Part shown: positions 2,759 through 17,830 of the stretch, one piece after another | How the letters are laid out: each line of letters opens with the position of its first letter | Position numbering within the stretch: position 1 is the first letter of the stretch | Origin: a virus | Length of the DNA: 25,783 nucleotides | Virus record (IMG/VR): IMGVR_UViG_3300028590_000081 | Location: 1-25,783 of that record | Direction: 5' to 3' (one strand) | Notes under the pieces: model-generated | Database searches by the model: none | What the model saw: the letters and a program-made list of their open reading frames with translations, nothing else | What the model was told of the DNA's origin: nothing | Program-made: the position numbers and the translations under genes

Positions 2759-3213
2759 CAGGCAGCCACCACCGCGGCGCCGCCGTCGAGCGGCACATAG
2801 GTCAGGACCCAGTTGATGACGCCGTCGGTGCCGGCCGACACCGACTCGATCTGCCCGGCGGTGAGGGTGATGGGCTGCTTCAGGTTCGGCACCGCACCCG
2901 GCCCGGTGAGGATCGAGTCCCCGGTGAGGCCCTGGAAGCCGAGGAGGTTCCCGGCGGGGGTGTCGGTGGTGCCGATGTCGGTCGCCGCCACGAGGTCCTT
3001 GGTGGTGCCGACGGTCGGGTTGTGCTGCAGCTTGTACGAGTTCGCGACGGTGATCGCGGTGGTGACCTCGCCGACGAGAGAGGTGATGAGCACCTTCCCG
3101 CCGGACACGGTGAACAGCGGGATCGTCGTGGCGGCGAGCGTGCCGGTGGACTTCTCCACCCGCACACCGAGCAGGATCGCCCGGACCTGGTCTCCCTGGA
3201 TGAGAGTCGACAT
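2758..3213 (-). CDS. Putative virion structural protein, unknown family
   Basis: 151 aa, start ATG 3213 three bases after the preceding stop. The sequence is beta-rich with few charged residues (VRVEKSTGTLAATTIPLFTV, LTAGQIESVSAGTDGVINW), no membrane segment and no Cys. Alternating hydrophobic and Thr/Gly/Val stretches suggest a beta-sandwich, as in head-decoration proteins. Its place two genes after the major capsid and coupling to the next gene by a one-base overlap support a virion role. I do not recognise a specific family, and a decoration role is inference from position. Confidence 0.75.
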   Translation of the reverse strand: MSTLIQGDQVRAILLGVRVEKSTGTLAATTIPLFTVSGGKVLITSLVGEVTTAITVANSYKLQHNPTVGTTKDLVAATDIGTTDTPAGNLLGFQGLTGDSILTGPGAVPNLKQPITLTAGQIESVSAGTDGVINWVLTYVPLDGGAAVVAA

Positions 3214-13190: not shown

Positions 13191-13369
13191 GGTTTCTGTT
13201 CCTCTCGGGTTTCCTCGACGACCAAGCCGACCAGCTCGGCGTCCGGGTCGCCTGGTGTGTGGCCGCGCACGGTCTCGGTCCAGCTGGTCCGAGTTCCGTC
13301 GGGGCGGCGGATGTCGCCCGTGGTCTGCCAGTAGCTGCGCGGGTGGGCGGTGAACGGCTCGTCGCTCAA
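13187..13369 (-). CDS. Small unknown protein with TTG start
   Basis: 60 aa. The best start is TTG 13369: GAGAGGAG lies eight bases upstream and the TTGA overlap with the preceding stop copies the coupling seen along the operon. A GTG at 13378 would leave no room for the ribosome site. The protein begins MSDEPFTAHPRSYWQTTGDI and continues with TSWTETVRGHTPGDPDAELV, looking like a small beta-type domain. No family recognised. Confidence 0.65.
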   Translation of the reverse strand: MSDEPFTAHPRSYWQTTGDIRRPDGTRTSWTETVRGHTPGDPDAELVGLVVEETREEQKP

Positions 13370-13863
13370 GGACGCCACTCCTCTCGGTATTGCGGGTGGC
13401 CGGCGTGCGGCAGGGCGAGCAGGCGGAGCGTGCTGCACGGGTACTCGACATGCTCGTGTCCGACGCACTTCTGCCACGGCGGATCCCAGTTCTCCGGCTC
13501 GACGAAGTACCGGCCATCGCTGCTGTCGACCAGCGCGCCTGGCCCGTGCTCGGCGATGATCGCTCGTTTGGCGGCGACGTCGGCCAGCACGACACGTGGG
13601 TGCACCGCCGCCAGATACGCCAGCTCGGCGTCGCCGCTCCCCCACGGGTAGCTCGGGAACGCGTCGCGGTCAGCGGTGCCCGATCCGTCGGCGAACTGTT
13701 CGCCCGCGCGCTCGCGCCCGATCTCCGCTTCGCACGCTTCGGCCTTGGCCTGCAAGTCGTCGAGCTGGGCTCGCAGGAATTCGGTGATGTTGGGCCCAGT
13801 TTGACCAAGATCGTTTGCATCAAGATCAACGCCACCAAGATCATTACGTTCAAGATCAACCAC
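13366..13863 (-). CDS. DUF6221-like protein with repeat-encoded N-terminus
   Basis: 165 aa from GTG 13863, preceded by GAGG at a good distance; a TTG at 13875 is a weaker alternative. From residue about 26 (ITEFLRAQLDDLQAKAEACE) to the end (CSTLRLLALPHAGHPQYREE) it matches the actinobacterial DUF6221 pattern, including the helix VLADVAAKRAIIAEH and the HEHVEYPC segment. These proteins are of unknown function and common in actinobacterial genomes and phages. The first 22 residues (VDLERNDLGGVDLDANDLGQ) do not belong to the family; they are translation of four GATCTTG repeats with 15-base spacing. No ATG, GTG or TTG exists at the expected family start, so the repeat seems to have been added in frame to the gene's 5' end. 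Confidence 0.75.
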   Translation of the reverse strand: MVDLERNDLGGVDLDANDLGQTGPNITEFLRAQLDDLQAKAEACEAEIGRERAGEQFADGSGTADRDAFPSYPWGSGDAELAYLAAVHPRVVLADVAAKRAIIAEHGPGALVDSSDGRYFVEPENWDPPWQKCVGHEHVEYPCSTLRLLALPHAGHPQYREEWRP

Positions 13864-13879
13864 GGGGTACCTCAAGATC
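13806..13879 (-). repeat. GATCTTG repeat array, left cluster 1 (5 copies)
   Basis: Cores on the minus strand occupy 13806-13812, 13821-13827, 13836-13842, 13851-13857 and 13873-13879. The four inside the DUF6221-like gene are exactly 15 bases apart; the fifth is 22 bases further upstream. The TGA stop of the cupin-like gene (13856-13858) straddles the 13851 copy. All point in the direction of local transcription. Confidence 0.85.
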
Positions 13880-14497
13880 GGGTCGGTGAGGGTTCAACTT
13901 GGCCAGCATGTGATCAAAACCCGGAACCGGCTGATCCTTGCGCCTCTGACCAGTCGCCAAATCCAGGTGACCCCAGTTGCCAAACTCGCCGTAACCACAC
14001 GACATGAGGCTCATCGTGCCGGGCTCGCACCAGTCGACCTCATGCCACACGCCGTGACGCACCTCGTTGGCATCCGGGCTGTAGTGCACGACGTGGGGTT
14101 CGATGACGACGTCGGCGTGGTCAGTCTCCGGGTCCACGTTGGTCCGCGTGAACCGGAACTCGCTGTAGGCGCCCTTGAGGACGTGGCCGCGGAACAGGTC
14201 CCACCGGTGATTGTGGGGAACCTGCTCCTCCGCTCCACCACCCCGGATGTCGGGCCGGAACCACACGTTGAGCTTCAGGGTTCTCTCCACGCCGATCAGC
14301 AACGTGAGTTCCGACTTGGAGATCTCGCCGTCGAGGTCGGGGATGTTGAGCCACTTCGCGGGATCGACGAACTGGGCGCGGCTCAACGGGCCGAAGTCGG
14401 GCGCGTGCTCGGCCACCCCGGCCGCGGCGAGTTCGTACATGGAGTCGGTCAGGACGAGTCCGGGGAGGACTTCGAGCGAGAACTTCGCGGATGTCAT
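13856..14497 (-). CDS. Cupin-like protein
   Basis: 213 aa from ATG 14497, preceded by GGGAGGATAAGCCC, an excellent ribosome site. The centre contains VPHNHRWDLFRGHVLKGAYS (H95, H97), followed by beta-strand-rich sequence (YSEFRFTRTN, HVVHYSPD) and WHEVDWCEPGTMSLMSCGYG (H152). Paired His in a HxH-(x)n-H layout between strands suggests a metal-binding cupin (double-stranded beta helix) fold. Cupins range from dioxygenases to isomerases and sugar or nucleotide modifiers; the substrate cannot be told. It lies in the early-side operon downstream of the repressor gene. The stop lies in a GATCTTG repeat and overlaps the next GTG by eight bases. Confidence 0.7.
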   Translation of the reverse strand: MTSAKFSLEVLPGLVLTDSMYELAAAGVAEHAPDFGPLSRAQFVDPAKWLNIPDLDGEISKSELTLLIGVERTLKLNVWFRPDIRGGGAEEQVPHNHRWDLFRGHVLKGAYSEFRFTRTNVDPETDHADVVIEPHVVHYSPDANEVRHGVWHEVDWCEPGTMSLMSCGYGEFGNWGHLDLATGQRRKDQPVPGFDHMLAKLNPHRPDLEVPRG

Positions 14498-14577
14498 GGG
14501 CTTATCCTCCCGTCGGTATGTGTTGCTGCCCATGGGTTTCCTGTTTCCAGATCGCGGAGGGAAGCCCAGTGGGGCAT
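14494..14577 (-). CDS. Micro-ORF leader of the cupin-like gene
   Basis: 27 aa (MPHWASLRDLETGNPWAATH and seven more). ATG 14577 has AGGAA upstream with usable spacing, and its TGA overlaps the cupin-like ATG as ATGA. It may be a short real product or a leader whose translation delivers ribosomes to the cupin-like gene. It follows directly after left repeat cluster 2. Confidence 0.45.
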   Translation of the reverse strand: MPHWASLRDLETGNPWAATHTDGRISP

Positions 14578-14595
14578 GGTCGGGTTCCTGTCGTT

Positions 14596-14654
14596 CAAGA
14601 TCATCCATTCAAGATCGAATTGATGTCGTTCAAGATCGACACCTGACCAAGATC
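14596..14654 (-). repeat. GATCTTG repeat array, left cluster 2 (4 copies)
   Basis: Minus-strand cores at 14596-14602, 14610-14616, 14631-14637 and 14648-14654, spaced 14, 21 and 17 bases. They fill the space between the ribbon-helix-helix gene and the next ORF. The TGA stop of the ribbon-helix-helix gene (14653-14655) lies in the first copy. Confidence 0.85.
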
Positions 14655-14853
14655 AACTCCCCGTGTCGCCCCCCTCCCTGTCGACCTTGAACGGCTGGGG
14701 CATCTGCGCGCCGGGCTCGCCGAGCATGGCGTCGACGAACTCGACGACGAGGGCAGCGGCGGTGGTGCCGGCGTTGTAGGACTCGGCGACGAACCGGAGC
14801 CGCTTCTCCTCTGGCAGGCGGACGGTGAACTTCGGGTTTCCCTGGGTGGGCAT
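14653..14853 (-). CDS. Ribbon-helix-helix repressor candidate
   Basis: 66 aa starting MPTQGNPKFTVRLPEEKRLR. Residues 8-13 (KFTVRL) form the DNA-contacting beta strand, 15-26 helix A and 30-43 (TTAAALVVEFVDAM) helix B, the compact MetJ/Arc/CopG fold that works as a dimer. The C-terminal 20 residues are polar. It reads away from a divergent promoter containing a 16-bp palindrome, so it is a likely autorepressor controlling both directions. The ribosome site is poor (GAGG one base from ATG), which may keep its level low. Antitoxins also use this fold, but no toxin-like partner is visible next to it. The stop codon is embedded in a GATCTTG repeat. Confidence 0.75.
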   Translation of the reverse strand: MPTQGNPKFTVRLPEEKRLRFVAESYNAGTTAAALVVEFVDAMLGEPGAQMPQPFKVDREGGDTGS

Positions 14854-14872
14854 GCCTCACTGTATCAGCCCC

Positions 14873-14924
14873 GGGTACCCACCCAAGATTATTCTATTTC
14901 CCTATTGCGGGTGGGTACCCACCC
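14873..14924. promoter_or_regulatory. Operator pair GGGTACCCACCC with perfect palindrome
   Basis: GGGTGGGTACCCACCC at 14909-14924 is a perfect 16-bp palindrome. A second site, GGGTACCCACCC at 14873-14884, shares 12 bases; the two centres are 40 bases apart, near four helical turns. Between them is the most AT-rich stretch in the area, with TAGAAT on the minus strand (14891-14896) as a possible leftward -10. Spacing suggests cooperative binding by the adjacent ribbon-helix-helix protein. Confidence 0.75.
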
Positions 14925-14933
14925 TGCTATAGT
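14905..14933 (+). promoter_or_regulatory. Rightward promoter of plus-strand block
   Basis: TTGCGG at 14905-14910 and TATAGT at 14928-14933 are separated by 17 bases. The palindrome occupies nearly the whole spacer, so a bound repressor would block RNA polymerase. Transcription would begin near 14940, about 30 bases before the first start codon. Confidence 0.65.
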
Positions 14934-14968
14934 TCTTATATCAGCAAGAGCGAGACAGGGAGAACGAA

Positions 14969-15211
14969 ATGACCGAGACCACCGAAACCGAGACCCTCCC
15001 CCGGGAATGCCTGATCATCCACGCCTTCGCCTACTGGCACATCGAGGAGGTCAAGGAGACCTACTGCGAGACCGAGTACCTGGTGGACCTGGTCATCGAG
15101 ATCCAGGACCTGACCGAGGGCCGGGAGTGGGACCTCCCCGGATGGCGAATCAAGGACCTGAAGACCAAGGAGGAGCTGACCGGGGAGGAGTTCCTCGCCC
15201 GCCACGGGTGA
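14969..15211 (+). CDS. Small acidic unknown protein, first gene of plus block
   Basis: 80 aa starting MTETTETETLPRECLIIHAF, with a strong net negative charge (many Glu and Asp) and a helix/strand mix (YWHIEEVKETYCETEYLVDL). AGGGAG precedes the ATG. Codon use is G/C-rich in third positions as expected for real coding. The gene is directly under the palindrome-controlled promoter and is followed by a GC hairpin, so it may be expressed in excess of the rest of the block. Strong acidity is seen in DNA-mimic anti-repressors and anti-defence proteins, but this is only suggestive. Confidence 0.75.
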   Translation: MTETTETETLPRECLIIHAFAYWHIEEVKETYCETEYLVDLVIEIQDLTEGREWDLPGWRIKDLKTKEELTGEEFLARHG

Positions 15212-15213
15212 GG

Positions 15214-15230
15214 GGCCCGGCCTCCGGGCC
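15214..15230 (+). terminator. GC hairpin after first plus-block gene
   Basis: GGCCCGG (15214-15220), a three-base loop and CCGGGCC (15224-15230) start three bases after the stop. There is no T-run, so termination may be partial. Confidence 0.45.
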
Positions 15231-15316
15231 GGGGCTGCTCCACCCTCCCGCTCACTTGCTTGCTGACCCTACCTAAGCATCTGGGGTTCGGGCCCCGCTC
15301 ACCCTCTCCCGTTGTC

Positions 15317-15339
15317 GATCTTGCTCAGTGTCGATCTTG
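15317..15339 (+). repeat. GATCTTG repeat pair, right cluster 1
   Basis: Plus-strand cores at 15317-15323 and 15333-15339, both preceded by TGTC, 16 bases apart, lying 26 bases before the next start codon. A further GATCTTG at 15551-15557 is inside the following gene and may be chance. Orientation is reversed relative to the left clusters, matching the direction of transcription here. Confidence 0.8.
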
Positions 15340-15365
15340 AACGCACCTCACCCGAGGAGCCAGCC

Positions 15366-15572
15366 ATGAACAGCACCCTCAGCGCCTACCGCTACACCAC
15401 CGCGATGCTGCTGTCCTGCTCCACGCGGCAGCTGACCACCATCTCCAACCGGGCGCACCTCGACATCCACAACTCGCACGCGGTGTACGTCGGCCTGACG
15501 CGGGCGCAGACCCTCGATGCCGCGCGACTGAACCGGGCCGACGCGCTGACGATCTTGGCCCGCCAGGGCTGA
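15366..15572 (+). CDS. Small unknown protein
   Basis: 68 aa from ATG 15366 with GAGGAG upstream; a longer frame from 15312 would translate the repeats and lacks a ribosome site. The protein (MNSTLSAYRYTTAMLLSCST, then helices NSHAVYVGLTRAQTLDAARL) is mainly helical, without Cys pairs or membrane segments. No family recognised. It lies between repeat cluster 1 and the first copy of a 25-bp direct repeat. Confidence 0.65.
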   Translation: MNSTLSAYRYTTAMLLSCSTRQLTTISNRAHLDIHNSHAVYVGLTRAQTLDAARLNRADALTILARQG

Positions 15573-15590
15573 CGGCTCTACCTGACCGAG

Positions 15591-15615
15591 AAGTACTTTC
15601 CGCGCAAGATATTTC
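15591..15615 (+). repeat. 25-bp direct repeat, copy 1
   Basis: Pattern AAGTnCTTTCCnCGCAAGATATTTC in two parts: AAGTACTTTC then CGCGCAAGATATTTC. It matches copy 2 at 23 of 25 positions. It lies 44 bases before the ATG at 15660. It may be a promoter (AT-rich AAGATATTT) or a regulator site; it includes CAAGAT, related to the reverse complement of the GATCTTG core. Confidence 0.7.
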
Positions 15616-15659
15616 ACCTCCCGACCCATCGCCGCATGACCGTCCACAAAGGAGACACC

Positions 15660-16043
15660 ATGTCCAACACCCTCGCCGTCCGTCGCGGCAACCGCGTCCT
15701 GTCGTACATGTCCGACTCGCTGGGCGTGGGCTACGTGGAGGGTATGAGCTACGACCCGACGTGGGGACTGGGCGCCGTGGTCCGCTGGGCTGACGGCTCC
15801 GTCGGCACATGGGACGTGGAGCACGACGTACTGACGGTCATCGACGGCGACACCAGACTGGTGGACGACTTCCACAACAACGTCGGCCGCTACTGCTCGG
15901 TCGACGACGTGCACGGCCGCAGCTGGTGCGTCGTGGCCGCAGTGAGCGGCGGCCGCTACCTGGTGGCACGTGAGCACGGGAGCTTGCCCGTCGACGACGC
16001 CGTGCGCATGGTCACGCACCGCCAGATGTCCAACCTGTACTGA
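15660..16043 (+). CDS. Unknown beta-rich protein
   Basis: 127 aa from ATG 15660 with AAAGGAGA as ribosome site; the upstream ATG at 15636 has none. The protein starts MSNTLAVRRGNRVLSYMSDS and is mainly beta (VGYVEGMSYDPTWGLGAVVR, WADGSVGTWDVEHDVLTVID), resembling a small barrel of SH3/KOW type, with a second similar segment (GRSWCVVAAVSGGRYLVARE). No catalytic motif is seen. The 5' leader resembles that of the next gene (direct repeat, GGAGAC then ACCATGTCCA), so the two are likely regulated alike. Confidence 0.7.
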   Translation: MSNTLAVRRGNRVLSYMSDSLGVGYVEGMSYDPTWGLGAVVRWADGSVGTWDVEHDVLTVIDGDTRLVDDFHNNVGRYCSVDDVHGRSWCVVAAVSGGRYLVAREHGSLPVDDAVRMVTHRQMSNLY

Positions 16044-16100
16044 TCGTCCGCCCCCACCGCGTGTAGGCGCCGCCGGTTCGTGACCGGGCGGGGGCACTCA

Positions 16101-16125
16101 AAGTCCTTTCCTCGCAAGATATTTC
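16101..16125 (+). repeat. 25-bp direct repeat, copy 2
   Basis: AAGTCCTTTC then CTCGCAAGATATTTC, differing from copy 1 at two positions. It ends 15 bases before the ATG at 16141, closer than copy 1 is to its gene, so if it is a promoter the leader here would be very short. Confidence 0.7.
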
Positions 16126-16140
16126 GATTGGAGACCCACC

Positions 16141-16545
16141 ATGTCCATGTCCACCGTCGTCCTCACCCACCGCGCGGCCGCCCTGGTCGGCGAGATCGCC
16201 ATGGCCACCCGCGAGGGCTGGAGCCTGCACCGGATCCACGAGCTGGAGGACGCCCGCGCCACCGCGTTGGAGGAGCTGCACGGCCACGCGATCGCGGAGG
16301 ACGTCGTACGCGGCATCGAGGGCGACGACGACGTGACGCTTGGCCGCCTGCTGTCGTTCGCGCTGCTGCTCGATGTGGACGCGCCGCGGGCCGCGATCGC
16401 GATCCGGGTGGTGCGGGACCGGCTGCACGAGCACGCGGTCGCCGTGCACCTGGCCGGCCGCAACACGCAGCGGTCGGGTCGGGAGGGTGTGCCGCACAAC
16501 ATGAACTACTCGTCGTGCTCTGCTGGTGTCGACCAGTGGCGTTGA
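16141..16545 (+). CDS. Unknown helical protein
   Basis: 134 aa from ATG 16141, preceded by TTGGAGACCCACC. The protein is largely helical and rich in Ala, Arg and His (AAALVGEIAMATREGWSLHR, HELEDARATALEELHGHAIA, AAIAIRVVRDRLHEHAVAVH). The C-terminal 25 residues are polar and probably disordered (HNMNYSSCSAGVDQWR at the end). No family recognised. The TGA stop at 16543-16545 overlaps the first GATCTTG repeat of the next cluster, the same arrangement as at the ends of the ribbon-helix-helix and cupin-like genes. Confidence 0.7.
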   Translation: MSMSTVVLTHRAAALVGEIAMATREGWSLHRIHELEDARATALEELHGHAIAEDVVRGIEGDDDVTLGRLLSFALLLDVDAPRAAIAIRVVRDRLHEHAVAVHLAGRNTQRSGREGVPHNMNYSSCSAGVDQWR

Positions 16546-16603
16546 TCTTGGTCCCACCGTGTTCGATCTTGGTCGCGTTGATCTTGGTCGAATGTCGATC
16601 TTG
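16544..16603 (+). repeat. GATCTTG repeat array, right cluster 2 (4 copies)
   Basis: Plus-strand cores at 16544-16550, 16565-16571, 16580-16586 and 16597-16603, spaced 21, 15 and 17 bases, close to the 17-21-14 of left cluster 2. Flanks follow GTT/GTC before and GTC/AAC after. The rest of the 185-base gap to the next gene (16604-16730) shows no further clear signal. Confidence 0.85.
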
Positions 16604-16730
16604 AACTGAGTCGAAACGTCCCACGCCGGGAGGCGCGGACGTCCGGGGAATCGAGACCCCGCTGACGATGACTCCCGTACCGTCAAGAAACATTCGCGGT
16701 ATTCGCCGCTCTCTCCACATTGGAATCACC

Positions 16731-17252
16731 ATGCCTACAGGCGACCCCGATGACGGGGAGATCGGCGACGTCGACGAGTTCCTTGGCACGCTCGGCGAGG
16801 TTGAGTACGACGACGTTCTGCTCTCCCTCCTCGGCGATGGGGGCAACCTCGACGTGCCCGGTGACGACGTCGAGCAGCAGCTGACGAACCTGCTCAGCGG
16901 CTGGCGTAACGACGGTGACCGCGAGCCGGTGCGGGACGAAGCCATCGGTCAGAAACACCCACAGGGCGGCGAATGGCCGTCGAACACCACAGGAGGAACC
17001 ATGTCCGCCACGGACGACGCTGCTGCTCTCCGCGCGATCCAGTTGCCGAACGGCACGATCCAGCAGTCCATGCAGGAACTCGACAACGTGCTCGCGCAGG
17101 CGAGTTCGATCCTCGGGTCGAGCGGGACGGGTCTCGGCGACATCACCAGTGCCGTGCAGGAAGCGAAGCTTCAGCTGGACAGCGCGTTCTCGGCCATGCA
17201 GCAGGTGGAGAGCGCGCTCGAAACTGCGGCGGGTGGTCTCACGCGAGGTTGA
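16731..17252 (+). CDS. Anti-sigma-D-like N-terminal region fused to helical domain; nested start
   Basis: 173 aa. Residues 15-67 (DEFLGTLGEVEYDDVLLSLL, later DDVEQQLTNLLSGWRNDGD) follow the DxLLxxL...LxxLLxxWRxD pattern that I know from the sigma-D-binding segment of actinobacterial anti-sigma factor RsdA. No transmembrane helix follows, unlike RsdA. From residue 91 a second region starts (MSATDDAAALRAIQLPNGTI) with two helices (MQELDNVLAQASSILGSS; AVQEAKLQLDSAFSAMQQVE) suggesting a hairpin or coiled coil. A strong AGGAGG at 16991-16996 precedes the internal in-frame ATG 17001, so an 83-aa product is probably made separately, or two genes have become fused. The start at 16731 has only a weak ribosome site; ATG 16668 is a longer alternative. 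Confidence 0.6.
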   Translation: MPTGDPDDGEIGDVDEFLGTLGEVEYDDVLLSLLGDGGNLDVPGDDVEQQLTNLLSGWRNDGDREPVRDEAIGQKHPQGGEWPSNTTGGTMSATDDAAALRAIQLPNGTIQQSMQELDNVLAQASSILGSSGTGLGDITSAVQEAKLQLDSAFSAMQQVESALETAAGGLTRG

Positions 17253-17432
17253 AGAGACAGCCTGCTCCCGTTCTCTCGGAACCCGGAACTCGGGAAAACC
17301 GGCCGTCAGCTCGATAACGAGCTGAACGAGGTCGTCGAGGAAGGCATCGAGAGGCGGGCGTACGGCAACGACACCGAGGACCAGGACGCGCGCGAGGCCA
17401 ACATCAAGGATGCCCGCGGTCGCCTGAACTAG
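17253..17432 (+). pseudogene. Stop-separated C-terminal extension of preceding gene
   Basis: Immediately after the TGA at 17250-17252 the same frame stays open for 59 codons to TAG 17432. It reads like protein (QLDNELNEVVEEGIERRAYG, NDTEDQDAREANIKDARGRL) and keeps G/C third-position bias, but has no ATG, GTG or TTG. Either a nonsense change (for example CGA to TGA) cut one longer protein, or the TGA is read through. A sequencing error is also possible. Confidence 0.5.
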
Positions 17433-17469
17433 ACTCGGGTGGTCTGCAACACCCGGGCCTGCCCGGCAG

Positions 17470-17498
17470 AAGGCCCCCGGCATCACGCCGGGGGCCTT
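17470..17498. terminator. Bidirectional terminator between convergent blocks
   Basis: Perfect 12-bp inverted repeat AAGGCCCCCGGC (17470-17481) and GCCGGGGGCCTT (17487-17498) with a five-base loop. It sits between the end of the plus block and the stop of the minus-strand gene at 17504. The A and T ends of the arms suit termination in either direction. Confidence 0.85.
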
Positions 17499-17503
17499 CG
17501 TCG

Positions 17504-17830
17504 TCAGGTGTCGATCTTGGTGGGTGCCGGCCGGACGACGGCGAGCTGGGCACCTTCCAGCACTACACACTGATGGCCGGGGAACTGGGATTCGATCAGT
17601 TCCATCATGAAGTCGTGCTCTGCGTCGCTGAGGGGGTGGTCGACGGTGAACACCAGAATGTCGCCGGGTTCGATCTTGAGGACGGTGGCGTCGACGAGCG
17701 GGAGCACGATGGGGTGCAGTTCGGCGAACGCCTCGGCGATGGCGTCGGACAGCGGGCTCCGCTCGACGCCGTGGACCCGGAGGTACTTCCGGTACACGTC
17801 GACCGGCCGCTCAGGTGCTGGAGTCGTCAC
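17504..17830 (-). CDS. Unknown small protein, last gene of right block
   Basis: 108 aa, GTG start 17830 overlapping the preceding stop as GTGA. The N-terminal half is helical (RSPLSDAIAEAFAELHPIVL), the C-terminal half alternates strand and helix (VLKIEPGDILVFTVDHPLSD, then EHDFMMELIESQFPGHQCVV and a final LEGAQLAVV). Similar short proteins with a GDxLVF...LS..E...L...FPG pattern occur in actinobacteria and their phages with no known function. Its 3' end contains the last GATCTTG copy on the opposite strand. Confidence 0.7.
   Translation of the reverse strand: MTTPAPERPVDVYRKYLRVHGVERSPLSDAIAEAFAELHPIVLPLVDATVLKIEPGDILVFTVDHPLSDAEHDFMMELIESQFPGHQCVVLEGAQLAVVRPAPTKIDT
17513..17519 (+). repeat. 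Single GATCTTG copy beyond the terminator
   Basis: GGTGTCGATCTTGGTGGG carries the full flanking context of the array. It lies 15 bases past the bidirectional terminator, in the rightward orientation, at the point where rightward transcription would collide with the leftward block. Confidence 0.6.

What the first reader, a model, noticed from the sequence alone, without database searches (positions are those of the whole stretch)
13856..16550. Stop codons built from the repeat
In three genes (RHH ending at 14653, cupin-like ending at 13856, unknown ending at 16545) the TGA stop is formed by the TTGATC part of GTTGATCTTG. In each case the reading frame ends at exactly the same point in the repeat. 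This suggests that the repeat spreads or is selected at gene ends, supplying a stop and a downstream site at once. It could be a mobile or recombinational module that tolerates insertion at 3' ends, or a coupled translation/transcription stop signal.
Basis: seen in the sequence. Interest (0 to 1): 0.7.

Follow-up and report, generated by a model that had tools for sequence, protein, structure and literature searches.

The report
Phage repeat arrays supplying stop codons
A temperate-phage fragment carries four small arrays of the sequence GATCTTG at joints between genes, three genes really do take their stop codon from it, and relatives show that the arrays came to lie at existing gene ends; they are probably control sites rather than mobile elements, and nothing about their function has been tested.

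Summary
RHH-like (stop 14653-14655), cupin-like (13856-13858) and the unknown gene (16543-16545) all end at the TGA of GTTGATCTTG, in the same phase. The window holds 15 array units (core GATCTTG, consensus GTYGATCTTGRWCG) in four arrays within 2.8 kb around a divergent promoter, each read in the direction of transcription. Two syntenic phage records decide most of the question. G001 has matching arrays with other copy numbers (one unit instead of four after the unknown gene) and the same stop phase, even after a strongly diverged RHH-like gene. G002 lacks all arrays. Repeat-free cupin homologues stop earlier, so the window's last residues are repeat-encoded. A DUF6011 gene keeps one stop with the array (G001) or without it (G002), so the stop is not always part of the repeat. 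Between window and G001, cores are 28/28 identical and the rest 49/66 (P=0.001). I found no sign of a mobile element (no fixed unit or terminal inverted repeats; shared positions) and no general RNA hairpin. Best reading: transcription-oriented cis-regulatory site arrays at gene junctions, like oriented intergenic repeats of other actinophages, with the stop a by-product of position. The trans-acting factor is unknown. New variant of a known kind.

The parts
14596..14657 (-). Array A1, 4 units (cores 14648, 14631, 14610, 14596) between the RHH-like gene and the short ORF/cupin-like gene; the first unit holds the RHH-like stop
   Evidence: matching array in G001, 87.5% over 88 bp
14653..14655 (-). 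TGA stop of the RHH-like gene, inside GTTGATCTTG
13806..13879 (-). Array A2, 5 units (cores 13873, 13851, 13836, 13821, 13806) between the cupin-like gene and DUF6221; the last four are 15 nt apart and open in the DUF6221 frame
13856..13858 (-). TGA stop of the cupin-like gene, inside the second unit of A2; the last residues (PDLEVPRG) are encoded by repeat DNA
15314..15339 (+). Array A3, 2 units (cores 15317, 15333) upstream of the gene at 15366; supplies no stop
   Evidence: related array in G001 right after a TGA
16541..16606 (+). Array A4, 4 units (cores 16544, 16565, 16580, 16597) after the unknown gene; G001 has a single unit at this junction
16543..16545 (+). TGA stop of the unknown gene, inside the first unit of A4
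16607..16622 (+). TGAGTCGAAACGTCCC, start of a conserved stop-and-3'-flank module; in G002, which has no array, the homologous gene ends at the matching TGA
14653..14853 (-). RHH-like gene (66 aa)
   Evidence: weak Arc/ParG match below cut-off
13856..14497 (-). cupin-like gene (213 aa), homologues in Saccharopolyspora and Amycolatopsis plasmids and in G001
16141..16545 (+). Unknown gene (134 aa), homologues in G001 (69%) and G002 (54% over residues 1-96)
14873..14924 (.). GGGTACCCACCC repeats in the divergent promoter region, probable operator of the RHH-like protein (inferred); G001 has a different repeat there (CGTGTATCTACA)

Best explanation
The repeat is a short asymmetric cis-acting site (consensus GTYGATCTTGRWCG, core GATCTTG) present as irregular arrays of 1-5 units at gene junctions around one divergent promoter of a temperate actinophage. 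Shown: arrays lie at junctions, read with transcription, keep their cores while spacers and neighbouring genes diverge, differ in copy number at a shared junction, and are absent all together from a syntenic relative. Shown: at gene ends the first or second unit can supply the stop, and in the cupin-like gene repeat DNA extends the protein. Inferred: the sites are bound, as DNA or nascent RNA, by a phage or host factor that adjusts expression across these junctions, as oriented intergenic sites do in other actinophages. Inferred: the TGA is a by-product of the array starting at the gene end; insertions that supply a stop are tolerated. Inferred: copy number changes by recombination between units.
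For: All 15 array units in the window, and all 7 in G001, read with transcription and lie at gene junctions within a few kb; the rest of G001's 48 kb has no arrays. Core 28/28 against the rest 49/66 identical in the A1 pair, P=0.0012. A1 is 87.5% identical although the RHH-like genes upstream give no BLASTP alignment. One unit in G001 against four in the window after the 69%-identical unknown gene; G001's unit equals the 5' half of window unit 1 joined to the 3' half of unit 4. G002 has 8 scattered GATCTTG and no pair within 30 nt. The GTT-GAT-CTT reading uses rare codons (4%, 9% and 5% of their families), which argues against a protein-level reason. The probable RHH operators differ between window and G001 while GATCTTG does not, so the RHH-like protein is unlikely to be the binder.
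Against: No binding factor is identified and no expression data exist. G001 is one relative, so core conservation rests on one array pair, and units were defined by an exact GATCTTG match. Spacings of 14-22 nt show no clear helical phasing. Clusters seen in unrelated viral contigs are not consistently oriented with genes.
Confidence: 0.45

Rival explanations
1. MIRU-like or recombinational spacer repeats: units insert or recombine at gene ends, and are tolerated there because they bring a stop (and a TTGA stop-start overlap). No dedicated binding factor.
For: Stop supplied in three window genes and two G001 genes; cupin-like protein lengthened by repeat DNA; array placed between the unknown gene and the TGAGYCGAAAC module at which the G002 homologue ends; copy-number difference; neighbouring gene content differs next to each shared array. 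MIRUs are said to insert at start codons with a coupled ORF (PMC12548453).
Against: No fixed unit length, no terminal inverted repeats, no target duplication demonstrated; positions shared by window and G001; absent as a set from G002; compound form in only 24 genome contigs, none titled as an actinomycete. Core conservation is not expected of a neutral spacer.
Confidence: 0.25
2. RNA elements: each unit folds as a small hairpin near the stop codon and affects termination, stability or re-initiation.
For: The G001 two-unit array folds well (z -3.8) and another G001 array moderately (z -2.1).
Against: Window arrays do not fold better than shuffles (z +0.5 to -1.0); pairing of flanks across units does not exceed permutation (P=0.23); no Rfam hit; terminator matches at chance level.
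Confidence: 0.12
3. The repeats are coding: xDLxx (VDLER, NDLGG) units form N-terminal extensions of downstream proteins, as in A2 before DUF6221.
For: A2 is open in the DUF6221 frame with 15-nt spacing; the frame of A3's last unit runs into the next gene.
Against: Spacings within the other arrays are not consistently multiples of three; frames differ between arrays; rare codons.
Confidence: 0.06
4. Coincidence of phase: the repeat is real, but its falling on stop codons means nothing beyond gene-end position.
For: Three of three at 1/3 each is only P=0.037; one gene keeps the same stop with and without the array.
Against: Stop phase retained in G001, including after a strongly diverged RHH-like gene; repeat-encoded C-terminus of the cupin-like protein.
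Confidence: 0.12

Closest known systems
Stoperators of cluster A mycobacteriophages (L5, TipsytheTRex; PMC9283540)
   Same: About 13-bp asymmetric sites in short intergenic spaces, oriented with transcription
   Different: Stoperators lie throughout the genome and are bound by a known immunity repressor; here the sites form dense arrays in one 2.8-kb region, and no repressor is known
Start-associated sequences of cluster K mycobacteriophages and Microbacterium EF phages (PMC3203893, PMC7302621)
   Same: Short, mostly asymmetric and oriented repeats in intergenic gaps of non-structural genes, function unknown
   Different: SAS lie 3-7 bp upstream of start codons; these begin at stop codons and occur in multi-unit arrays
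18-bp asymmetric motif of Microbacterium cluster EC phages and 30-bp repeats of cluster EI (PMC7302621)
   Same: Repeated motif in small intergenic regions, unknown role
   Different: Dispersed copies with another sequence, 22-30 bp upstream of starts in EC
Mycobacterial interspersed repetitive units (PMC12548453, PMC2734929)
   Same: Repeats at gene junctions with variable copy number, touching translation signals of neighbouring genes
   Different: MIRUs are 40-100 bp bacterial repeats said to insert at start codons; here a 13-14 bp phage site with irregular spacing, at stops

Membership tests
Stoperator | Asymmetric ~13-bp site oriented with transcription in intergenic spaces | tested here: met
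   22 of 22 array units in window and G001
Stoperator | Sites distributed across the phage genome | tested here: not met
   Arrays confined to 2.8 kb (window) and about 1.6 kb (G001, whole 48-kb record)
Stoperator | Cognate immunity repressor with HTH and Stoperator domains | tested here: inconclusive
   Only small XRE and RHH-like proteins seen among the proteins scanned; the window is a fragment and G001 was not scanned completely
Start-associated sequence (SAS) | 3-7 bp upstream of a start codon | tested here: not met
   The last units lie further upstream, and the first units start at stop codons
MIRU | 40-100 bp repeat unit | tested here: not met
   Unit about 13-14 bp, spacing 14-22 nt
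MIRU | Located at gene junctions with copy-number variation | tested here: met
   One unit in G001 against four in the window at the same junction
MIRU | Mobile insertion | tested here: inconclusive
   Shared positions in two relatives; one repeat-free relative; no target duplication shown
MITE / insertion sequence | Terminal inverted repeats and fixed ends | tested here: not met
   Arrays of 1-5 units of variable length; the inverted repeats found at the arrays are unit-to-unit matches between oppositely oriented arrays
Intrinsic terminator | GC-rich hairpin followed by a T run | tested here: not met
   2 matches against 1.3 in shuffles over 13300-17600, one just before A4 and overlapping its start
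Known Rfam RNA family | Match at gathering score | tested here: not met
   No match in the window

The most novel reading that the evidence does not exclude
The arrays are portable gene-end adaptors: each unit is both a recombination joint and a built-in stop, so that accessory genes can be exchanged at their 3' ends without losing termination. The shared GATCTTGGTC extension in some unrelated viral contigs would make this a wider device.
Probability: 0.13. Interest if true: 0.7.

Novelty: new variant of a known kind. Interest (0 to 1): 0.42.

Why it matters
Oriented intergenic repeats recur in actinophages and mostly lack a known function. This case adds arrays that vary in copy number and overlap stop codons, with relatives that have and lack them, so function and origin could be tested directly. 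It also shows a gene's C-terminus apparently rewritten by repeat DNA.

Tried and rejected
RHH-like protein as the binder: its probable operators change between window and G001 while GATCTTG does not; inference only. CTTG-tetraloop hairpin per unit: flank pairing at permutation level. Host-wide repeat: compound pattern found in 24 genome contigs with no actinomycete title; this tests one compound form only, and the host's own genome could not be searched. Site at 17513 (end of the gene at 17504): rejected as coding, since the L070 homologue has the related DKVDT residues. Close homologues of the cupin-like and RHH-like proteins in viral contigs: none, although the G001 cupin homologue (60%) was missed by that search and found later, so such negatives are weak. 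RHH-like and unknown-gene homologues in plasmids: none. Terminase relatives L001-L080 show no comparable cluster, but most do not cover this region. BLAST of array A1 against phages and plasmids gave chance-level hits.

Full report
What the window is. It is a 25,783-base IMG/VR virus record with terminase and portal genes on the minus strand and a RuvC-like gene and an XRE protein further right. The host is probably a member of the Pseudonocardiaceae: the cupin-like protein has homologues in Saccharopolyspora and Amycolatopsis plasmids. That host assignment is inference.

The observation. GTTGATCTTG is strongly over-represented. Counting cores, 15 units form four arrays: A1 14596-14657, A2 13806-13879 (both minus strand), A3 15314-15339 and A4 16541-16606 (both plus strand). 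Units to the left of the divergent promoter read on the minus strand and units to its right on the plus strand, so all read with transcription. A unit of the form TTGATCTTGA even holds two TGA codons in the same frame (TGA TCT TGA). The arrays are not always stops: A3 supplies none, and two internal GTTGATC units are not stops.

Relatives. A search with the unknown gene led to G001 (IMGVR_UViG_2856594327_000001, 48,011 bases, with an integrase). The RuvC-like gene led also to G002 (IMGVR_UViG_2862753875_000001, 49,173 bases). Both are syntenic with the right part of the window. G001 has seven array units at three junctions; G002 has none.

Junction by junction. (i) Unknown gene: window and G001 proteins both end in QWR followed by CGT TGA TCTTG (frame: CGT, then the stop); the window then has four units and G001 one. 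In G002 the homologue ends ..AACCGC TGAGCCGAAACGTCCC; the window has TGAGTCGAAACGTCCC directly after its array. The array therefore lies between the gene and a conserved stop-and-flank module. Whether it was inserted there, or a neighbouring gene was lost from a G001-like order, is not decided. (ii) RHH-like gene: window and G001 genes give no BLASTP alignment, although a global alignment beats shuffles, so they are strongly diverged relatives; both end at the TGA of unit 1 of the same array. (iii) Cupin-like gene: the G001 homologue, at another place and without repeat, ends LNPHLRPQ; the S. pogona homologue ends MNPHL; the window ends LNPHRPDLEVPRG, whose last residues are read from two units. 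(iv) DUF6011 gene: G001 has TGA followed at once by GTTGTCGATCTTGG, and G002 has the same TGA followed by unrelated DNA (family). Here the stop is independent of the array.

Is the core selected? In the A1 pair the four cores are identical (28/28 positions) and the rest is 49/66, Fisher P=0.0012. This is one array pair, and gap positions count as differences.

Mechanism. Folding does not support a general hairpin, although G001's two-unit array folds strongly. The rare codons GTT, GAT and CTT argue against protein coding. The joint absence of all arrays from G002 fits a shared trans-acting factor, but also a single ancestral gain or loss. I therefore prefer oriented cis-regulatory sites, with MIRU-like recombinational repeats as the main rival. 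Neither has been tested by experiment.

Comparison with known kinds. Oriented asymmetric intergenic repeats of unknown or regulatory role are known from cluster A (stoperators, PMC9283540), cluster K (SAS, PMC3203893) and Microbacterium phages (PMC7302621). The present sites share orientation and intergenic position but fail the genome-wide distribution of stoperators and the start-codon position of SAS. MIRUs share junction position and copy-number variation but not unit size. A text search for TTGATCTTG gave 454 papers, of which the ten listed looked unrelated by title and abstract; no paper describing this repeat was found.

Wider occurrence. Most hits have 3-base periodic spacing, as coding repeats would. 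Twenty loci do not, including L193, with about 15 clustered copies in an intergenic stretch, and small clusters in L117, L184, L093 and L120. Several carry the extended GATCTTGGTC. Their orientation to genes is not consistent, and I do not claim that they are the same element.

Noticed in passing
window 15591-15628 and 16101-16138; L225 about 2964-3003: A second repeat, AAGTACTTTCCGCGCAAGATATTTCGATTGGAGACCCA, shortly upstream of start codons (also in G001), a start-side counterpart to the stop-side arrays
   Followed up: partly
window 16607-16622; L239 (minus strand) at the ends of the genes at 15273 and 14747; L225 about 4258: TGAGYCGAAAC.. module: different genes end at the same conserved TGA followed by a hairpin-like flank, another stop shared as part of a 3' module
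   Followed up: partly
window 16041-16100; L239 (minus strand) about 15724-15660: TGATCGTC..GCCCCC..GCGTGTAGGCGCCGCCGGTTCGTG conserved 3' flank beginning at the stop codon after two different genes
   Followed up: no
L193 4086-4705: 19 GATCTTG/CAAGATC copies in an intergenic stretch of an unrelated phage with 43% GC, mostly TTGATCTTG, in both orientations
   Followed up: partly
L117 3393-3474, L184 5704-5793, L093 3579-3613: GATCTTG clusters downstream of a similar CCCGTACA..-containing non-coding stretch in three GC-rich phage contigs
   Followed up: partly
window 14873-14924; L225 2144-2242: Different palindromic repeats (GGGTACCCACCC; CGTGTATCTACA) in the divergent promoter region, apparently exchanged together with the small regulator gene
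   Followed up: partly
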